Positions 44,436 to 58,261 of a stretch of 64,000 bases of DNA are shown here, in pieces (the stretch's first letter is position 1; the number at the start of each line of letters is the position of its first letter). A model generated the notes under the pieces. It had not been told where the DNA came from. It saw only the letters and a program-made list of their open reading frames with translations, and searched no databases. The stretch spans positions 1,275,293-1,339,292 of the forward strand of contig JAHNZQ020003147.1 of the NCBI GenBank assembly GCA_019155205.2. Reading direction: 5' to 3'. The position numbers and the translations under genes were made by a program. The DNA is from Gracilaria vermiculophylla. Lineage: Eukaryota; Rhodophyta; Florideophyceae; Gracilariales; Gracilariaceae.

Positions 44436-45836
44436 TTAAAGACCTTTCATGGCAATTCGAGCTGCGGCAAGAGTTCTGTCGATATCAGCCTCTGTGTGTT
44501 GTAAACTAGTGAAACCTGCCTCGTACTGCGAAGGAGCTAAGTAAACCCCGTTTTCCATCATGGCGCGATGGTAGCGAGCGAACTTGTCAAAGTCGCATTT
44601 CTCCTTAACATCTTCAAAACAAGTTACTGGTCCCTCACAGAAGAAGAGACCCCACATGCCGTTTATGTGACCACCACACACTGCGTGCCCATTTTCTCTT
44701 CCAATATCTAATAAACCGTTGACAAGGCGAGCGGAAATTTTATCCAGGTACTCGTAGCTACCGGGTCTCTGCATTATTTCCAGGGTTTTAATGCCTGCAG
44801 TCATTGCCAGCGGATTGCCACTTAGCGTACCCGCTTGGTAGACAGGACCTGCAGGAGCAACTAAACTCATGATATCTTTGCGACCACCGTAGGCACCGAC
44901 CGGTAAACCACCGCCAATTACCTTTCCAAACGTAGAGAGATCGGGTTTGATTCCGAAGTAGCCCTGAGCACCACTGTACGAGATGCGGAAGCCAGTCATT
45001 ACCTCATCAAAGCATAGCAAAGCTCCTTCTTGTTCCGTGACCTCTCTGAGACCAGTAAGGAACTCCTTTGTCGGTGGAATAAACCCTGAGTTTCCAACGA
45101 CAGGTTCTAAAATAACCCCTGCAATCTCTCCCTTGTTCTGTTCAAAGACAGCCTTGACTGAGTTTAAATCATTGAATCTCGCAACGAGTGTGGTTTCGGT
45201 GGATGCTTTTGGTACCCCTGGAGAGTCGGGCAGGCCAAGCGTCAGAACACCTGAACCAGCTTGAACGAGGTACATGTCCGCATGGCCGTGGTAACAACCC
45301 GAGAACTTGAGAATTTTCTGTCGCTCGGTAAAAGCACGCATGACACGCACAACGCTCATGCATGCCTCTGTACCAGAGTTGACAAAACGAACCATCTCGA
45401 CACTCGGGACTGCATCGATAACCATTTTTGCCAACTGATTTTCCAGAACGCTCGGGGCACCAAAGCTGGTGCCTTTCTTGAGAGCCTCTTGAAGCGCGGC
45501 ATTCACCTCTTCGTTGGCGGCTCCCACGATTGCCGGTCCCCACGAACCGATGTAGTCAATATACTCGTTTCCATCGATGTCATAAGCCTTTGAGCCTTTG
45601 ACGGAATCAAAAACAACTGCATCGCCGCCGACTGACTTGAATGCACGCACCGGGGACGAGACGCCGCCGGGCATTAGATCAGCAGCCTCTTTCAAAACCC
45701 TTTGCGATTCGGATGTCTTCAGAGACTGGCTGGCAACCATGCTAACCGAGCGCTGGGAAGAGAGATTCGAGCGGCTTGTGAGACGCCGCGTGTGCAGCGG
45801 CAACGAAGCCATGAACGCGGGAATTTCAGGAGCCAT
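44436..45836 (-). CDS. GSA: Glutamate-1-semialdehyde 2,1-aminomutase, plastid
   Basis: ATG at 45836 gives 466 residues. The first 45 or so are Ser/Thr/Arg-rich with few acids, as in a plastid transit peptide. The mature enzyme starts at about [21 protein letters not shown]. Motifs: [36 protein letters not shown], and the PLP-lysine segment [19 protein letters not shown] near residue 300, then [17 protein letters not shown]. It converts glutamate-1-semialdehyde to 5-aminolevulinate, the entry to chlorophyll and haem by the C5 route, in the plastid stroma. It is strong evidence that the organism has a plastid. Convergent with the glycosyltransferase gene, 202 bp apart. Confidence 0.96.
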
Positions 45837-46383
45837 TGTCAACGGTTGTCGTTGAATCGGTTAGAAGAGACGGCGAGCAACGCGAAGATGCCGGTAATTG
45901 AGCCGTAGTTCAAGGCAGCTTGTGTATCGTCCACCGCGACTGGGCAACGGTGAGGAGGACTCAGCTGCGGTTGGGTACGGGCGGGGGAATAGTCTGGAGG
46001 GTTTTGCTGACATGTTGAGATCTCTGACGATTCTGTGATCCCCACGCGGTGAGACGAGATTGGCCCGGAGGTGGTTGGATCACGGAGCGTAACTGGTTCA
46101 GGGGCATCGCGCCTCAACAATTTTTGGACCACTAAAACAATTGACTGTAGCGTGGAGCCGGCGGCGTTTGTTGGGGATTCGGTGCGGCGTTAACCACTCG
46201 CCAAGTCCGGCAAGAGCAACAGCGATCACGCATCGGATGCTCCAACTGGGCAGCCGAACACACAGCAAGCGGCGCCCTAACCCCCATTCCGAGCGTCGCG
46301 CAACCCAGTGACTCGTAGTGTGCACTTCCGCATCCTGAACAGACGTTGCGCGCTGCACCCAGATCCGGGTCTGCTTCTCAAAG
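45837..46383. promoter_or_regulatory. Divergent region between GSA and a small-protein gene
   Basis: 547 bp between head-to-head starts. No clear TATA box or RNA gene. Open frames on the minus strand have no recognisable content. Confidence 0.45.
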
Positions 46384-46780: not shown

Positions 46781-48643
46781 TCACTTCCGTTCGGTCTCGG
46801 TCGTTGGGTAAACAAGCGAGTGAGCAGGTGCGACAATTAGCGTGAAGATACATATTCCGGTAAACAATCCAATGAACTCAAACACATCGACTACAAATTC
46901 TGGCCAAGTCATTGTTGGAGTCGTGATAATCGTTTCCGTCTCAAATGTATCAAAGTCGAAGTGAACATTGTATAGATCAACTGCACTTTGAGCGAGTTCG
47001 TGTGAAGCTGACATGCTTTGTCTGATCTCATACTCAGTTTTGCCCTGATTCAATACTTTTTTAAATATGTATCTAGTGTTTTGAGTCGCTTCAAATGCAG
47101 AAACCTTCGTATGAGGCGATACTATTGGCGTGCCATCGACACCGTCTGCTTCTTCTGCATAGAGTTCCAGACTGTCGAAAGTGAAAAAATCCTTTTCCAG
47201 GGTTAGACGACTTGGACCCGCAATTTTAGGATCACTCGCACTCCACGAGTAAGCTGAATAGTACGGTCCGGATCCTGTCTTTACCCACCGTTCTTGCGCG
47301 TTGCGATCAAACTGATAAGAAATATCCGCTTTATCCCTGGATGGATAGAAGAAACCAGAGAAAAAGTAAACATTGCAACAAAAATCAAAGAACGTTTGGC
47401 TGTCGTCACGGAACCAGTCCACTCCAATAGTCTTTTCAAAGTCTTCACCCTTGAAGTCCAGGATGCCTTGACCTTCTAGTTGTTCAGCGTACTTTTGAAT
47501 CTCGTCTACAAAAAGAGACACTACCATGATATTCCGCCTATGATAACCTGTCTGACAGGCTGCCAAAAGTTTTGTTCTATAAAATATTATATTCACCGCT
47601 GAGTGTAAGATGGTGCCCTTTTCGGTTTTGGGAGGATAAAGCAGAAGTCTTGATTTGTAACCCAACCTTATGCAATGAAAACAGGTTTTCGTATTCGCTT
47701 GGTTTTGAATACTGAAATCAGATTTGGATCGCAAAGCAGTTGTTTCTCGTACGACATCAAAACCTCCATTTCCGTCGCATGCAGAGACATCTCGAGCTAC
47801 AAAAACGTCTTCCGACTGCAACTTCGTAGAGTTGCTCAAAACATCGGGATATGTAAAATCTGAGATAACCGAAGAGGTAGATTGGTTGTATCGAATGAAT
47901 CTTTGAATTCCAAAAATAGGTAGCCCAGGAAACATTGATGTGGGATAGTGTGAGTAGCTTGGAATATTGGGGGCAAAATTGCATATCGTTAAGGCCGGAA
48001 GCTCTTGAGCTTGCTTTTGCGAGCGTTCAACGTGGATTGCAACGTGCCTCTGAGCATACCAAAAGTCGGCGGAAAGAAACCCCAAAGTGATCATCATTCC
48101 AAAGACAGCAAAAACCCAAGCAGTCGTTGTGAGACAAAAGAAACTCTGGTCAACAGTATCAGCGGATTCAAGATTACCATGCTTTGCAGTGATTTTCCCG
48201 TTGCTCATCAAAATATTCAGCAGCGTTCCTCCTTTGCTTGATAACGTTTGAGATTCTTCAAAAATGCGTGATGAAGTGGCTTTTGGAAATCCATCCCCAT
48301 ACGCGGAGTCGAACGACAGCATCAGAGGATCCTGAACTTGCAGATCGTTTTCAATCTCTGTTGCCCACGAATCGAAATCAACTCCATAATCTCCTCCTTC
48401 TGCAGTAGCATTTGATAGCAAATGACTAAGACGCATTCGATTGTCAGCAAGGAACTCATCCAACAAGGCAACATCTTCTCCACTTTCCACTTTTTCCTGA
48501 CGAGTCGCCCCCAATTTTGCGAGACCATTTACGACTCTCTTAAAGGATTGTAGTTCTAAGTTGCTATCATTGTATTTCTTTTCGGCCACAAGCAGATTTC
48601 TTGATACATTTCTCACCACTTCTTCTTTCTCATGCTTGTCCAT
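46781..48643 (-). CDS. DEG/ENaC/ASIC-like two-helix channel protein, copy A
   Basis: A 620-residue single-exon gene. A 165-residue cytosolic N-terminus contains a His-Gly pair (H155-G156 in ITAKHGNLES) just before TM1 (about 170-192), where DEG/ENaC channels have their conserved HG gating motif. Directly after TM1 comes ELPALTICNFAPNIPSYSHY (from 214), close to the family's post-TM1 F/L-P-A-(V/L)-T-I-C-N signature. The loop of about 390 residues has several Cys, including CFHC (321-324) and FCCNVYFFSGFFYPS (421-435). TM2 (about 583-605) reads FVVDVFEFIGLFTGICIFTL, matching the family pattern D-x4-G-L-F-x-G-x-S/C. In the filter position it has G596-I597-C598 instead of G-A/S-S. The C-terminus is short. 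Function as a sodium channel is inferred. Confidence 0.65.
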   Translation of the reverse strand: MDKHEKEEVVRNVSRNLLVAEKKYNDSNLELQSFKRVVNGLAKLGATRQEKVESGEDVALLDEFLADNRMRLSHLLSNATAEGGDYGVDFDSWATEIENDLQVQDPLMLSFDSAYGDGFPKATSSRIFEESQTLSSKGGTLLNILMSNGKITAKHGNLESADTVDQSFFCLTTTAWVFAVFGMMITLGFLSADFWYAQRHVAIHVERSQKQAQELPALTICNFAPNIPSYSHYPTSMFPGLPIFGIQRFIRYNQSTSSVISDFTYPDVLSNSTKLQSEDVFVARDVSACDGNGGFDVVRETTALRSKSDFSIQNQANTKTCFHCIRLGYKSRLLLYPPKTEKGTILHSAVNIIFYRTKLLAACQTGYHRRNIMVVSLFVDEIQKYAEQLEGQGILDFKGEDFEKTIGVDWFRDDSQTFFDFCCNVYFFSGFFYPSRDKADISYQFDRNAQERWVKTGSGPYYSAYSWSASDPKIAGPSRLTLEKDFFTFDSLELYAEEADGVDGTPIVSPHTKVSAFEATQNTRYIFKKVLNQGKTEYEIRQSMSASHELAQSAVDLYNVHFDFDTFETETIITTPTMTWPEFVVDVFEFIGLFTGICIFTLIVAPAHSLVYPTTETERK

Positions 48644-49145
48644 ATTCTTGGACTGGTTTCTTAGGGAATTCTAGTTTCGTGAAAATGATACCTATCTCAA
48701 TATCATCAGCTTTTAGCTGTTCAAAAAAGGATTCTAATACTATGTCCGAAAGTGGCTGAGGTACGAAAGAAATATTCTGTTCAAGGCGGAGAATTTCTGG
48801 GTGAGGTGAAATGAAATTGCTGTGAAGTTACATGAAACGATTTGCCGAGAATAACCGACAGCGACGTGCCATGAAATGCTCTTTTTTTGGCTTCTCAAGA
48901 CGCTATTGAAAACAAGATATTCATTAACGTTTTCGGTGCAGCTCTTGTGGAGTGTACTGGATTTCATCTTTAGGCCAAGATGGATACTCATATCCCTCGG
49001 CTGATATTCCAAAAAATCACTGCTCATTCCGTATTCCTGTTCTTCGAACCAAGTGACATACAGTCTTTGATTCATTTTCTTCAACACATCAAAACTTATT
49101 TTCACGTCTCTTGAAAGCGAAGGCAAGTTTGTATTCCACCCGAAA
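48644..49145. promoter_or_regulatory. Shared 5' region of the two channel-like genes
   Basis: 502 bp separate the divergent starts of copies A and B, so their promoters adjoin or overlap. The stretch is AT-rich. A 128-codon minus frame (49126-48740) crosses it without an ATG at its open end and without recognisable motif; it could be a missed exon but is not supported. Confidence 0.5.
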
Positions 49146-51071
49146 ATGAACGTCGTTAGAAAGAGACGTGTTTCTCACCCAAACCAACAAGAGAACGATG
49201 ATTGGTCCGAGAGCAAGCTAGCGACTGAATTCAGAGAACTGGCCATTGATGATGTACATGGAATGTATTTTGCTGTCGAGAAATCTACCGAGGAGCTTGA
49301 TGCTCAAATGGAAGCGGCCCGGCAAACAGCGGAACGGATCGCAAATGATCCCGACGACTTTTATCCGACTGACCTTCTTCCAGCCAGTTGTGCCGTTGAT
49401 CAGGTGAGCCATATGTTCACGGCTGCTGAAGTAAATGAGGCACTGCACAGAGAGGATACCGAATTCAAGGGGCGTTCATCTCTTGTACGCAGGGCTTCGT
49501 CGTTCCGAGCAAAGGACGGTCCCACTTCTGCGGGGGTAAGGAGGAGCGCCAGTGGAACATTGTCCGGCGGACCGAGCCAGGGTGAGAATGGACGATCAAA
49601 GTTGTCACTAGGCATTTTTGGATCCGGTTCATCTATTTTTAAGTGGAGTCTTTCAAATTACTTGCAATCCGTGGCCAGTACGAGGGAGAAGAGAATCGTC
49701 GCCGTATCTGCATGGTTGCTGGCTCTGACTGGTCTCATCATTTCGTTGGTTTTCGTGACGAAGGACTTCTTGGCAAGCAGGGGCGAATTGGCAAGCACGA
49801 TTGGTTTCGAGAAGACGGATGTTGTTGAGCTGCCGACTCTGCACTTGTGCACGACCGGCACAGAACTGCCGCCGTTTTCCTACCTTCCAAACGGACGGTA
49901 CCAAGGGCAGCCATTGGTTTGGCTCGATTACATTTGGAGCACGAGTTCGAACGCAAGCTTTGCATACCCTGAAACAAAACTGTTACCGCAGGTAAGAGTG
50001 GAATCTTTCACGGCTGCTGGGGGCCAATGCATCGCTTTGAACCAAATGGACCCAGCGCATTTTGAATCGGAAAACACAAACCTGCCGTCGTGCTTCCATT
50101 GCTTCACGATAGAGAGGGATGCTTTGTTTCGGCTGGAGGAGAGAAGTGGCGCAGACTCCAAAGCGCCTGCGCACAAGTTCGTTGTGCGCGTGTCCCAGAA
50201 TGGGCTGGTGTCGAGATGTCGGCAGACGTCGTTCGGCCTGCCGATGTACCTGATAGAGTTCTTTCGCAGAGAGATGGTGCACTACAGTTTGGACTTGAAG
50301 CTGCTCGAAATCTTGGACTATGGAGGGTACGACCCGCAGGATGAGACACACAAGTACATTTTGTGGCCTGCGTACCGGAGAGGGTTTCGAAACAAGACGA
50401 CGGACGCGAGAATGGTGGACCAAGCGGACATGTTTTGCAACGTGTACATGTTCTCGGGTTTCTTTTACCCTTCGACATCTACTGGGGTGCGGTATAGATT
50501 CAACAGCGAAAGCTTTACGTGGGAGAGAAGTGGTGGCGGACCGTACTACCCCAAGGACTTTGGTTCAATCTCAGGAAAGCGGTCGGCGCTAAGTATGCTG
50601 AGCCACAGCGCAAGAATCGGAGAGGAATTGCTTGAGGCACAGGCGTTGTATCCAGGACAGCACCTGTTCGTGACGACAAACTATTCGGACGACGGTACGA
50701 ATGAATTGCTGGGGGTGGTGCCAGCGGCGAAGGTGGCGTTCCTGCATCTGGAACGCAATCTGATCCTCGGAAAGAACGAATCGTTCCAGTCGCACGCCGT
50801 GTTGGAGGACATGCGCAGCGGGGACGTGAGGGCGCAGGCGGACATGTACGTGATTGAGGTGAGCATGAGGAGCTTTCTGACCAAGGTGGTGGGGAAGCAG
50901 GCGTCGGTGTCGTGGTCGGCGTTCATTGCGGACTTTTTTGGTTTGACGTCGCTGTTCCTGGACGTGTCGGTGTACACGCTGATCATATCTCCGCTGATTG
51001 TGCGGGCGCGCAAGCAAAAGCTGCGGATGAGAAAGAGGCAACGGCGCGCAAACGAAGGCAACGCGGCGTGA
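49146..51071 (+). CDS. DEG/ENaC/ASIC-like two-helix channel protein, copy B
   Basis: A 641-residue single-exon gene, head to head with copy A and clearly its paralogue. TM1 lies at about 184-205 (IVAVSAWLLALTGLIISLVF), followed by ELPTLHLCTTGTELPPFSYL (from 228), the same post-TM1 block as in copy A. CFHC recurs at 316-319 and MFCNVYMFSGFFYPS later. A shared G-P-Y-Y motif follows it. TM2 (about 593-615) reads FIADFFGLTSLFLDVSVYTL, fitting the DEG/ENaC TM2 pattern, but its filter triplet is D606-V607-S608, placing an acidic residue at the usual Gly. The tail is short and strongly basic (RARKQKLRMRKRQRR). No HG motif precedes TM1. The 180-residue N-terminus is Ser/Arg-rich with possible phosphorylation sites. 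Codon GC rises toward the 3' end. Confidence 0.65.
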   Translation: MNVVRKRRVSHPNQQENDDWSESKLATEFRELAIDDVHGMYFAVEKSTEELDAQMEAARQTAERIANDPDDFYPTDLLPASCAVDQVSHMFTAAEVNEALHREDTEFKGRSSLVRRASSFRAKDGPTSAGVRRSASGTLSGGPSQGENGRSKLSLGIFGSGSSIFKWSLSNYLQSVASTREKRIVAVSAWLLALTGLIISLVFVTKDFLASRGELASTIGFEKTDVVELPTLHLCTTGTELPPFSYLPNGRYQGQPLVWLDYIWSTSSNASFAYPETKLLPQVRVESFTAAGGQCIALNQMDPAHFESENTNLPSCFHCFTIERDALFRLEERSGADSKAPAHKFVVRVSQNGLVSRCRQTSFGLPMYLIEFFRREMVHYSLDLKLLEILDYGGYDPQDETHKYILWPAYRRGFRNKTTDARMVDQADMFCNVYMFSGFFYPSTSTGVRYRFNSESFTWERSGGGPYYPKDFGSISGKRSALSMLSHSARIGEELLEAQALYPGQHLFVTTNYSDDGTNELLGVVPAAKVAFLHLERNLILGKNESFQSHAVLEDMRSGDVRAQADMYVIEVSMRSFLTKVVGKQASVSWSAFIADFFGLTSLFLDVSVYTLIISPLIVRARKQKLRMRKRQRRANEGNAA

Positions 51072-51634
51072 TGCGAGCGCGGCGGGGCGCCGGCGCTCGG
51101 CAGCCGGCCGACGGCGGCGGCGAGTGGCGGTCCGCGGGCCGCGGGCCTGCACAGTGGGTAAAGCGCGAGAGGGAGCACGGGCGCGGGCGCGCGAGCGCGG
51201 CACGGCAGGGCGACGCGCGCGCGCGGCGGCGTGGCGGCGCGGCGGGGGAGCGTGGGCGGCGACGCGGCGCGGCGCGGGGCGGCGCGGCGCGGCGCGGCGC
51301 GGCGCGCACGTTGCGGCGCGCGGGCGGCGGCGGGCGGCGGCACGCACGCGCGCGCAGCGCTGCGCAGTTTGGAACAGCGACACAGGGGGCGGCGCGAGCG
51401 CGCGCGCGCTCGCGCGAGCGCGCGCACATGCGGCGCGGCGGAGCGTGCGCCGCGCGCGCGCGCCGCGCGCACTCGCGATCACATGGGCGGTGCTCGCGCG
51501 GGGGTGGTGGGCGATGGCACGCGCGAGCGCGCGCGCTGCCGCCGCGTGCCGTCGTGCAGCGCGGCGCGGGCGGCGCGAGGCGCAGGCGGCGGCGCGAAGC
51601 GCAAGCAGGCCGGTGGAGCGCAAGCTGCGGCGGT

Positions 51635-51856
51635 GGAACGAAAGCGGCCGCGACGAAGCGCAGGCGGCACCGACGAAGCGAAAGAGGCAGTGACGAAGCG
51701 CTGGCGACGAAACGAAAGCGGCCGCGACGAAGCGCAGGCGGCACCGACGAAGCGAAAGAGGCAGTGACGAAGCGCAGGCGACGAAACGAAAGCGGCCGCG
51801 ACGAAGCGCAAGCGGCACCGACGAATCGAAAGCGGCGGTGACGAAGCGTAAGCGGC
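51635..51856. repeat. Three-copy 74-bp higher-order minisatellite
   Basis: Copies begin at 51635, 51709 and 51783, exactly 74 bp apart, each starting GGAACGAAAGCGGCCG or GAAACGAAAGCGGCCG. Each copy is itself built from about four 14- to 20-bp subunits with the core GACGAAGCG(A/C)A(A/G)GCGGC. Copies differ by few substitutions, so the 74-bp duplication is fairly recent. Confidence 0.9.
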
Positions 51857-51955
51857 AGCCGAGCGCAAGCGGCAGCCGAGCGCAAGCGGCAGCCGAGCGC
51901 AAAGCGGCAGCCGAGCGCAAAGCGGCAGCCAAGCGCAAGCGGCAGCCAAGCGCAG
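51851..51955. repeat. Six-copy 17-18-bp minisatellite (GCGGCAGCCGAGCGCAA)
   Basis: Six head-to-tail units of GCGGCAGCCGAGCGCAA, some with an extra A and the last two with CCAAGCGCA. It abuts the 74-bp array and shares its GCG-AAGCGGC core, so the two arrays probably have a common origin. Confidence 0.9.
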
Positions 51956-55795: not shown

Positions 55796-58261
55796 ATGCC
55801 GTCTATCGTTACCTTTTTGTTGCTCTGCGCACTGGTGACGAGCGGTAGGACGGAAAGTCTTTCGAATTCCCATCTTCAGTCAAGGCGTGCTGCGTTTTCG
55901 TCACCGTCTGGGGATGGATTCGGACTGTCTCCACAGTCTGCCCTTCCCGGACATGTAAAACCACAATCCTCTTCATCTGTCGAGAGATTAACGTTAATGG
56001 ATGTTAACGTACCTGAGCTCTCTGCCTTGTCATCTGATGAAGATGAACGGGAAGGAGAAATGAACCTTGCTGGACCGTCAACTCCAAATATGCGCCCCAA
56101 ATCTATGGGAGAATCTTCTATCGATGCACCCACAAAACCCACGACGACGCCAGAACCCAATGAAGCTCTCTCAACCTCTCTTGATTTTAACGGTCTCAAT
56201 GCGGAAGGCTTACCAACTCCCACTCCACAAGCATCTCAATCGGAGAGCAGAGCACCTCCCGGAATTCATTTTCGAAGGTTCAATTCCGACGGTTCTCTCG
56301 CCACCGATTCTGCGTCTCAAACGAAAACACCGGAGCCAATCCCCGATCCATTGGGCGACTTTATTGCGAGTTTAGAAGAAGAGACTCCTTCAAAGACTCA
56401 GGAACCCGAAATGGATGGCGTTCCGGAGTCCAGCGAAACAAGCGAAGAAGAGGCACCTTCAGCAATTGTCATGGACAAAGACCCTTTTGTTGGTCCTGTT
56501 CCTGAGTCTTCTCCGTTAGTGAGCCCTTCTCCTGAAATATTGGAAATTGATGCGGAAGAAATTGCCCTCGCCACCGAAAGCGATATTCAGCGTCCTGATG
56601 AATCTAACCCACGAGCATCGGTTTTTGTTTCTGGGCCTGTCACTTCGTCCGTAACTTGGAACAAGGGAGAGCCTCCAGTGTTTTCCTTTTCAACATCCAA
56701 TGACAATGAAGCGGACAAGGGGAAAAGCGATGAATTGGACGAGGGACAAAGTGATGAAAAAGAAGCGGACGAAGAAAAAAGCGATGAAAGCGATGACAAT
56801 ATATCCGATACTGGAGAAGAAGCTACAGTAGATGAAGTAGAGTCCACAACTGAATTTGGCATCGAACCCTCGTCTGAGCCTGAAATTGATGTTGAGGGTA
56901 AAAGAACCAACGCCATGGGATGGCTGCTGCCTAAAAGCCCAGGGCGCCCAAAGCCCTCAGATACGAATCCACCTCCATCGCCAACCAGCACTCAAACGCC
57001 GACCATTGTCATTGATTTCCCGATGAACCCAATGGATACCATTCCAATTCAAGATGCTGGGAATGCAGATGGGTCTCCTTCAAGTACTGACATGACCAGT
57101 AGCGATGCGAATGGGCAGAAGGGACGAGGGCCATTTGATGTCGTTGCTCCAGAGAATTTTTCTTCTTTTCCGAAACCGCCAAACACTGAAGAAGAAGGAA
57201 CCGACTGGAATTTTTCCGGGGAAGACACCACAGAGGATTTCATAGAAGCTTCGCCAGTAGCAGTGTTTTCAGATTTCTTTGATGTTTCTTCCATTTTGGG
57301 AGATCACAAAGGCTCCACGGATCCCGAATTTTCCGCAGAACCAGAAGCATCTGAAGAATCTCCTCTACCATCAGAGGAACCTGATTTGATATCAATTGCT
57401 CTTGTTGTAAGGCATCCACCGTCTTTTGGGCCGGAAGAGTTAGCGGAAGAGATTCGCTTGAATTCAAACGAGTTCATCGTGCCAGAGGAATGGGAAATAG
57501 TCAGCGTATTTCAGCTCTCACAGTTGTCAAAGTTTGCCTCGGATGATGTGGACCAGACGGATCCTCAGAAGAATGCACCCGAAGATGGCCATATTGCTTT
57601 CGAGCTTGTCATGGAAGCTAGATGCGCAGCAGAAGTAGACTGCGTCGCGAAGCTTGAGGAAAACAAAAAATTCATTCGAGATGGTAACATGGATCAGACG
57701 CTCGCCGCTCACGACTTCAGCCGCGTTTCAGTATTTCTGGAAGGAGAGATGACCGAACGGACAAACCCATTGTCAGCAGTAGCAACTCCTGGTCTTGGAG
57801 TTGGCTTGATTGCTGGAATTGCCGTGGGTGGAATCGCGATAATTTCTCTTGTGGTACTTTTAGCAGTCGTTGCAGCCAATATGAGGAGCAGGTCACAAGC
57901 AAACGCCTCGTCGGGATATGACTCAGAGCTAGAGTTTGAAGATGACGTTGGTCCAGACCAAGAATTCCCATTGGAACAGGGGTCGTTTATGATCAGCAAT
58001 TTTGGAGGGACACCTCGAAACTCAAATGCAATGATTCCTTGGTTGAACGACTCATCATCAGGATCTGGGCATGGTTCTGGACATGGTAGAAATGCGCGAT
58101 CTTTTATTTCGGTTGATTCAATGACACCAAATGATCCTAACAGAATGTCGCAGTACCGATTCGATGAGACAAAGTCTTCAGTGTCAGGATCTGAATCGGG
58201 TGAAGTCGTGCAAGTCGTAGGACCTGAGGAGAGCGGCAGCACAGTTTACGCCGTGCAATAA
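55796..58261 (+). CDS. Type I membrane protein with acidic Ser/Thr-rich ectodomain
   Basis: An 821-residue single-exon gene. A signal peptide is visible (PSIVTFLLLCALVTSGRTES, cleavage near 19). Residues 30-525 are Ser/Pro/Thr/Glu/Asp-rich, with an acidic repeat (DKGKSDELDEGQSDEKEADE near 305-325), probably extended and O-glycosylated. Residues 530-650 look folded: LISIALVVRHPPSFGPEELA, FELVMEARCAAEVDCVAKLE with two Cys, and FSRVSVFLEGEM. A single transmembrane helix (GVGLIAGIAVGGIAIISLVV) lies at about 668-695. The 120-residue cytosolic tail is acidic and Ser-rich. I recognise no family; the layout is that of a cell-surface or extracellular-matrix receptor. Convergent or paired neighbours give no clue. 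Confidence 0.7.
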   Translation: MPSIVTFLLLCALVTSGRTESLSNSHLQSRRAAFSSPSGDGFGLSPQSALPGHVKPQSSSSVERLTLMDVNVPELSALSSDEDEREGEMNLAGPSTPNMRPKSMGESSIDAPTKPTTTPEPNEALSTSLDFNGLNAEGLPTPTPQASQSESRAPPGIHFRRFNSDGSLATDSASQTKTPEPIPDPLGDFIASLEEETPSKTQEPEMDGVPESSETSEEEAPSAIVMDKDPFVGPVPESSPLVSPSPEILEIDAEEIALATESDIQRPDESNPRASVFVSGPVTSSVTWNKGEPPVFSFSTSNDNEADKGKSDELDEGQSDEKEADEEKSDESDDNISDTGEEATVDEVESTTEFGIEPSSEPEIDVEGKRTNAMGWLLPKSPGRPKPSDTNPPPSPTSTQTPTIVIDFPMNPMDTIPIQDAGNADGSPSSTDMTSSDANGQKGRGPFDVVAPENFSSFPKPPNTEEEGTDWNFSGEDTTEDFIEASPVAVFSDFFDVSSILGDHKGSTDPEFSAEPEASEESPLPSEEPDLISIALVVRHPPSFGPEELAEEIRLNSNEFIVPEEWEIVSVFQLSQLSKFASDDVDQTDPQKNAPEDGHIAFELVMEARCAAEVDCVAKLEENKKFIRDGNMDQTLAAHDFSRVSVFLEGEMTERTNPLSAVATPGLGVGLIAGIAVGGIAIISLVVLLAVVAANMRSRSQANASSGYDSELEFEDDVGPDQEFPLEQGSFMISNFGGTPRNSNAMIPWLNDSSSGSGHGSGHGRNARSFISVDSMTPNDPNRMSQYRFDETKSSVSGSESGEVVQVVGPEESGSTVYAVQ

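What the first reader, a model, noticed from the sequence alone, without database searches (positions are those of the whole stretch)
46781..51071. Head-to-head pair of DEG/ENaC/ASIC-like channel genes in an alga
Two adjacent, divergently transcribed paralogues of 620 and 641 residues share a two-helix topology with a Cys-bearing loop of about 390 residues. Immediately after TM1 both carry an E-L-P-(A/T)-L block (copy A ELPALTICNF, copy B ELPTLHLC), close to the F-P-A-V-T-I-C-N signature of DEG/ENaC channels. TM2 in both (FVVDVFEFIGLFTGICIFTL and FIADFFGLTSLFLDVSVYTL) matches the family's D-x4-G-L-F-L-G-x-S-x-L-T pattern. Copy A also has an HG pair before TM1 at the position of the family gating motif. 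This family is best known from animals, so a tandem pair in a plastid-bearing eukaryote would change its known range and suggests an unrecognised algal cation-channel system, perhaps a heteromer given the shared promoter.
Basis: partly seen in the sequence, partly recalled or inferred. Interest (0 to 1): 0.88.

Follow-up and report, generated by a model that had tools for sequence, protein, structure and literature searches.

The report
Red-algal relatives of DEG/ENaC channels
A seaweed genome carries a back-to-back pair of genes for membrane channel subunits related to the sodium and acid-sensing channels of animals, but with an altered ion filter, which points to an unstudied channel system in red algae.

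Summary
Two intact single-exon ORFs, A (46781-48643, -, 620 aa) and B (49146-51071, +, 641 aa), stand head to head, 502 bp apart, and are paralogues (E 8e-31). Both match PF00858 (A E 9e-9, above cut-off; B 4e-3, below; 35 of 36 family members at E<=0.1). AlphaFold models of both match DEG/ENaC channels and the chloride channel PAC/TMEM206 in all 50 printed rows of each PDB comparison. The named relatives are three Gracilariaceae; A and B relatives share a contig length in 8 of 16 A clusters, down to about 40% identity, so the pair is old. The genome has at least two more paralogues (C, D). I read A and B as subunits of a heterotrimeric, probably cation-permeable but not classically Na+-selective channel, in a divergent branch of the DEG/ENaC superfamily. 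A published BLAST survey that included Rhodophyta named no candidate there. Trimer, permeation and stimulus are untested.

The parts
46781..48643 (-). Copy A: 620-aa two-TM DEG/ENaC-superfamily subunit, single exon
   Evidence: ORF; PF00858 E 9.3e-9, 35.3 bits over cut-off 23.6; AlphaFold model pLDDT 76; fold matches
48329..48643 (-). Copy A N-terminal helical stretch (residues 1-105), presumably cytosolic
   Evidence: Predicted helices 3-53, 59-77, 90-104; no Pfam match but ASC further on; alignable through the A family
48047..48163 (-). Copy A TM1 helix (161-199)
47981..48004 (-). Copy A post-TM1 block ELPALTIC (214-221); P and C in 38 of 38 family rows
47342..47377 (-). Copy A ectodomain block CNVYFFSGFFYP (423-434), in the most conserved 20-residue stretch of the family
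46817..46906 (-). Copy A TM2 helix (580-609)
46850..46858 (-). Copy A filter position 10'-12': G-I-C instead of G/S-x-S
   Evidence: GxC in 17 of 17 A rows
48644..49145 (.). 502-bp divergent intergenic region (possible shared promoter; not tested)
49146..51071 (+). Copy B: 641-aa two-TM DEG/ENaC-superfamily subunit, single exon
   Evidence: ORF; PF00858 E 4.2e-3, 16.6 bits, below cut-off; AlphaFold model pLDDT 72; fold matches
49680..49784 (+). Copy B TM1 helix (179-213)
49827..49850 (+). Copy B post-TM1 block ELPTLHLC (228-235)
50913..50996 (+). Copy B TM2 (590-617 of the predicted helix 590-640)
50961..50969 (+). Copy B filter position 10'-12': D-V-S instead of G/S-x-S
   Evidence: DxS in 18 of 18 B rows that reach it; P0018 is truncated there

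Best explanation
A and B are pore-forming subunits of a trimeric plasma-membrane channel in a divergent, red-algal branch of the DEG/ENaC superfamily. Each has a cytosolic N-terminus, TM1, an extracellular domain with a few disulphides and the palm/beta-ball core shared with ASIC, ENaC and PAC, and TM2 lining the pore. They come from one divergent locus and probably assemble together, so that the filter ring mixes GxC (A) and DxS (B). With Asp at 10', Cys at 12' and no E18', the pore should pass cations but not with ENaC-type Na+ over K+ selectivity; permeability to K+ or Ca2+ is plausible. Inferred: trimer, heteromer, plasma membrane, topology, cation permeation. Unknown: the stimulus (stretch/osmotic change or acid are first guesses, from relatives only).
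Against: B, C and D lie below Pfam's cut-off singly. Profiles of A alone and of B alone found no DEG/ENaC chain in the PDB at E<=10; the 36-row A3 profile found ASIC5 only at E 0.079. Foldseek's best rows for both models are PAC, an anion channel. No G/SxS filter in A or B, no conserved HG, at most six widely shared extracellular Cys, no E18'. Across 38 rows the most conserved 20-residue stretch is an ectodomain block (A about 416-443), not TM2. No trimer was modelled. Models rest on 36 related sequences, pTM 0.61 and 0.58. In G. domingensis the tags 24g25 and 24g223 share a contig length but are not consecutive. Nothing shows that A and B meet.
Confidence: 0.68

Rival explanations
1. They are PAC/TMEM206-like proton-activated anion channels, or a third lineage of the shared DEG/ENaC-PAC fold, and the DEG/ENaC motifs are inherited from the common ancestor.
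Confidence: 0.17
2. They are not channels: surface receptors or cell-wall sensors built on a DEG/ENaC-derived fold.
For: Filter residues changed in A and B; the most conserved stretch of the family is an ectodomain block around CNVYFFSGFFYP, not the pore; long N-terminal helical region in A.
Against: TM2 is still strongly kept: D0' 38 of 38, P20' in 37 of 37 rows reaching it, filter triplet nearly fixed within the A and B clades. Loss of pore function would be expected to relax it.
Confidence: 0.08
3. Chance resemblance, artefact or contamination.
For: B alone scores below Pfam's cut-off.
Confidence: 0.01

Closest known systems
DEG/ENaC channels of animals (ASIC1, ASIC5, ENaC, FaNaC)
   Same: Two TMs, large ectodomain, P-x4-C block after TM1, D0' and LF at 7'-8' of TM2, palm/beta-ball core by predicted fold
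   Different: Filter GxC and DxS instead of G/SxS; no conserved HG; no E18'; four invariant and two further common extracellular Cys (ASIC1 has 14, recalled); 5-15% identity in the structural alignments; long N-terminus
DEG/ENaC homologues outside animals (Tunicaraptor, Cafeteria; candidate in Symbiodinium; PMC10507113, passages and section 13 read)
   Same: Non-animal members of PF00858
   Different: Found with animal BLAST queries; the same survey listed Rhodophyta among the taxa searched and named candidates only in Holozoa, Alveolata and Stramenopiles. I could not align their sequences
PAC/ASOR (TMEM206) proton-activated chloride channel
   Same: Same two-TM fold; the model of A covers nearly the whole PAC chain
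   Different: No sequence match by Pfam or profile; PAC is an anion channel; the TM2 pattern is DEG/ENaC-like here
Paralogues C (G000:C12, 622 aa) and D (G000:C17, 666 aa) of the same genome
   Same: PF00858 matches below cut-off, same four invariant Cys
   Different: C keeps GIC, D has the canonical GAS filter; both lie on other contigs than A/B

Membership tests
DEG/ENaC superfamily (PF00858) | Profile match above curated cut-off | tested here: met
   Met for A: 35.3 bits over 23.6. B 16.6, C 17.0 and D 15.9 fall short singly. 35 of 36 A+B members at E<=0.1; precomputed Pfam label on 12 of 16 A and 3 of 18 B relatives
DEG/ENaC superfamily (PF00858) | Two TMs with palm/beta-ball ectodomain core | tested here: met
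DEG/ENaC superfamily (PF00858) | Finger, thumb and knuckle subdomains | tested here: inconclusive
DEG/ENaC superfamily (PF00858) | Post-TM1 F-P-x-V-T-x-C block | tested here: met
   P and C with the same spacing in 38 of 38; the F is L (29), M (4), I (2), F (1), V (C) or A (D)
canonical animal DEG/ENaC | G/SxS selectivity filter in TM2 | tested here: not met
   A GxC 17 of 17; B DxS 18 of 18 rows that reach it; C GIC; D GAS meets it. Filter definition from PMC8536179
canonical animal DEG/ENaC | His-Gly motif before TM1 | tested here: not met
   HG aligned in 1 of 17 A rows; 3 of 38 rows have any HG in the 60 residues before TM1, at 17, 25 and 47 residues' distance
canonical animal DEG/ENaC | Cys-rich ectodomain (7 disulphides in ASIC1, recalled) | tested here: not met
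   4 invariant Cys plus one pair in 31 of 38
DEG/ENaC superfamily (PF00858) | Trimeric assembly | not testable with these tools
   Only single chains could be modelled
DEG/ENaC superfamily (PF00858) | Na+-selective, amiloride-sensitive current | not testable with these tools
   Needs electrophysiology
PAC/TMEM206 | Two-TM PAC fold | tested here: met
PAC/TMEM206 | TMEM206 sequence family match | tested here: not met
   No Pfam family but ASC listed for A and B at E<=10; no PAC chain at E<=10 in profile searches

The most novel reading that the evidence does not exclude
Red algae carry a branch of the DEG/ENaC-PAC superfamily with at least four genes, whose old, linked A/B pair forms an obligate heterotrimer with a new kind of filter (Asp at 10' from B, Cys at 12' from A) and so conducts K+ or Ca2+ rather than Na+. 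The fold then predates animals and reached Archaeplastida by descent, and this branch stands between the cation-selective DEG/ENaC and the anion-selective PAC channels.
Probability: 0.3. Interest if true: 0.82.

Novelty: new variant of a known kind. Interest (0 to 1): 0.62.

Why it matters
DEG/ENaC channels are treated as an animal family with scattered protist finds, and their origin (loss or transfer) is open in print (PMC10507113, passages read). A conserved family in multicellular red algae gives an independent branch to root the family. Its natural filter variants (GxC, DxS, and GAS in one genome) offer a test of what the G/SxS motif does, since many artificial variants there are non-functional (PMC8536179, section 3.4.4 read). 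It also gives a candidate ion-channel system for seaweeds that face salinity and pH swings (the last point is inference).

Tried and rejected
HG gating motif: rejected. Own-genome Pfam search found nothing at E<=1e-3 although the protein scan gives A 9.3e-9: that search missed the window's own gene, so the count of four paralogues rests on protein searches and is a lower bound. Prokaryotic and viral relatives: none in prokaryote contigs or viral contigs, and no viral structure at E<=0.001 for A; the contig scans need near-exact peptide words, so they exclude only close relatives. The third protein search, with the combined profile, brought no new protein; I had no animal or protist DEG/ENaC sequences to align, and made no tree with them. 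The hosts of 13 of 16 A clusters and 15 of 18 B clusters are unnamed, so spread beyond Gracilariaceae is not shown. The paralogue tree has very long branches for C and D; their places are unsure. Single-sequence searches of the PDB with A, B and D gave no DEG/ENaC chain at E<=10. Finger/thumb subdomains could not be judged. Head-to-head orientation in other species was not seen; only shared contig length was. I made no reversed-sequence control of the Pfam scores.

Literature: the listings (open-access library; one search listed 15 of 24, the other calls all that matched) show no paper that by title or abstract start reports a DEG/ENaC channel in red algae. Of these papers I read passages of PMC10507113 (and its section 13), PMC3681921, PMC10770216 and PMC7935092 (there the match was the word 'enacted'), and passages and section 3.4.4 of PMC8536179; the others I did not open. 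Most subscription papers are not held. PMC10770216 states that choanoflagellates have DEG/ENaC, PMC10507113 found none: unresolved here.
Full report
What is there. Copy A (46781-48643, minus strand, 620 aa) and copy B (49146-51071, plus strand, 641 aa) are intact single-exon ORFs with in-frame stops upstream of the ATGs and 502 bp between them. They align over 468 columns at 25% identity, E 8e-31. Each has two hydrophobic segments. The host is a red alga of or near the Gracilariaceae by inference: the nearest named relatives of A and B are from Agarophyton chilense (73% and 78%), Gracilaria domingensis (70%, 70%) and Gracilariopsis chorda (56%, 61%), all Rhodophyta, Gracilariaceae. The genome held has 44.8 Mb in 27 contigs.

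Family assignment by sequence. The only Pfam family listed for A or B at E<=10 is PF00858, ASC, the amiloride-sensitive sodium channel family: A 9.3e-9 and 35.3 bits (cut-off 23.6), B 4.2e-3 and 16.6 bits. Of 36 A+B family members scanned one by one, 35 match PF00858 at E<=0.1. The own genome holds at least two more paralogues, C (G000:C12, 622 aa; 30% to A) and D (G000:C17, 666 aa; 25% to A over A residues 287-607), which match PF00858 below its cut-off (3.3e-3 and 7e-3). A profile of all four kinds (38 rows) lists ASIC5 and BRTNaC1 as its five best PDB sequences at E 0.006-0.034; the 36-row profile gives ASIC5 at 0.079, with both the post-TM1 block and the TM2 stretch aligned. Profiles of A alone or B alone do not reach DEG/ENaC chains at E<=10. 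So the sequence link is real but distant.

Motifs. After TM1, P-x4-C is in 38 of 38 rows. In TM2, D0' is in 38 of 38 and L7'F8' in 36 of the 37 rows that reach it. One row, P0018 (G. domingensis B), ends in TM2 as annotated and was set aside for the later positions. Position 6' is G in 16 of 17 A rows and S in 18 of 18 B rows. The filter triplet 10'-12' is GxC in 17 of 17 A rows (GIC 14, GVC 2, GLC 1), DxS in 18 of 18 B rows (DVS 14, DIS 3, DFS 1), GIC in C and GAS in D. Position 18', called a well conserved Glu in PMC8536179 (passages), is V, I or L in all 37 rows. Four extracellular Cys are invariant (38 of 38); a further pair (A 289 and 321) is present together in 31 rows and absent together in 7, as expected of a disulphide. 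The most conserved 20-residue stretch over 38 rows is not TM2 but the ectodomain block around A 416-443, which holds CNVYFFSGFFYP; its role is unexplained.

Conserved pair. The 8 include the three named species and unnamed assemblies in which A and B are only 39-44% and 40-45% identical to the window's copies; one such contig is 9,299 bp long. In G. chorda the locus tags are consecutive (BWQ96_00059, BWQ96_00058); in G. domingensis they are not (FGB62_24g25, FGB62_24g223), so adjacency there is not shown. The tree keeps A and B apart (A core of 15 rows 100/98, B of 19 rows 99/99), both groups holding all 8 linked sources, so the duplication predates them. Orientation elsewhere was not seen.

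How it most likely works. By analogy with ENaC, where different subunits make one pore, A and B are likely partners in a trimer with TM2 around the pore. This is inference: no complex was modelled. The review PMC8536179 says that within the filter only changes of Ser 12' reversed K+/Na+ selectivity, and that acidic residues below the filter matter for Na+ over K+ (passages); it also reports cadmium block of 12'-Cys and 12'-Asp variants of ENaC and notes that Asp carboxylates can bind divalent ions (section 3.4.4). In what I read of it, nothing is said of Asp at 10'. From this I predict that a pore with Cys at 12' (A), Asp at 10' (B) and no E18' is not a classic Na+ channel; K+ or Ca2+ permeation is my guess, with low certainty. 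The stimulus is unknown.

Known and new. DEG/ENaC homologues outside animals are in print for heterokonts and a filasterean relative (PMC10507113, passages). That study first ran BLASTp with animal queries on many taxa, Rhodophyta included, and named candidates only in Holozoa, Alveolata and Stramenopiles (section 13). Eight literature searches listed no report from red algae. The named relatives are called hypothetical or unnamed proteins, although Pfam labels already sit on 12 of 16 A and 3 of 18 B relatives, so a database user could have met them.

Verdict. A real, conserved, linked pair of DEG/ENaC-superfamily genes in red algae, with non-canonical filters. I do not file A and B as canonical DEG/ENaC channels, since the filter, HG and Cys tests fail; I file them as a divergent branch of the superfamily that probably works like one. 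Membership of the superfamily I hold at about 0.9, channel function at about 0.75, the A-B heteromer at about 0.55.

Noticed in passing
L004:490-2487 (+), G000:C17: Paralogue D, 666 aa, keeps a canonical-looking TLFTGASVFSL filter segment and P-V-V-T-V-C after TM1; a 781-aa ORF overlaps it on the other strand.
   Followed up: partly
L002:1048-2913 (+), G000:C12: Paralogue C, 622 aa, GIC filter, 30% identical to A, on another contig than the pair.
   Followed up: partly
window 47342-47377 (A 423-434) and the matching block of B: CNVYFFSGFFYP-like ectodomain block is the most conserved stretch of the family; no function known to me.
   Followed up: no
window 51569-51954: GC-rich tandem array (reported periods include 17, 20, 40 and 74 bp) about 500 bp downstream of copy B, before an asparagine synthetase gene.
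   Followed up: partly
window 55796-58261 (+): 821-aa ORF with no Pfam match at E<=0.001.
   Followed up: no
window 44436-45842 (-): Class-III aminotransferase, probably glutamate-1-semialdehyde aminomutase with an N-terminal extension (the precise name is my reading).
   Followed up: no
control genomes of the genome search: PF00858 is reported over its cut-off in Thermotoga maritima, unexpected for this family; the match was not looked at.
   Followed up: no
P0018 (G. domingensis B relative): Annotated protein ends within TM2, probably a gene-model error.
   Followed up: no
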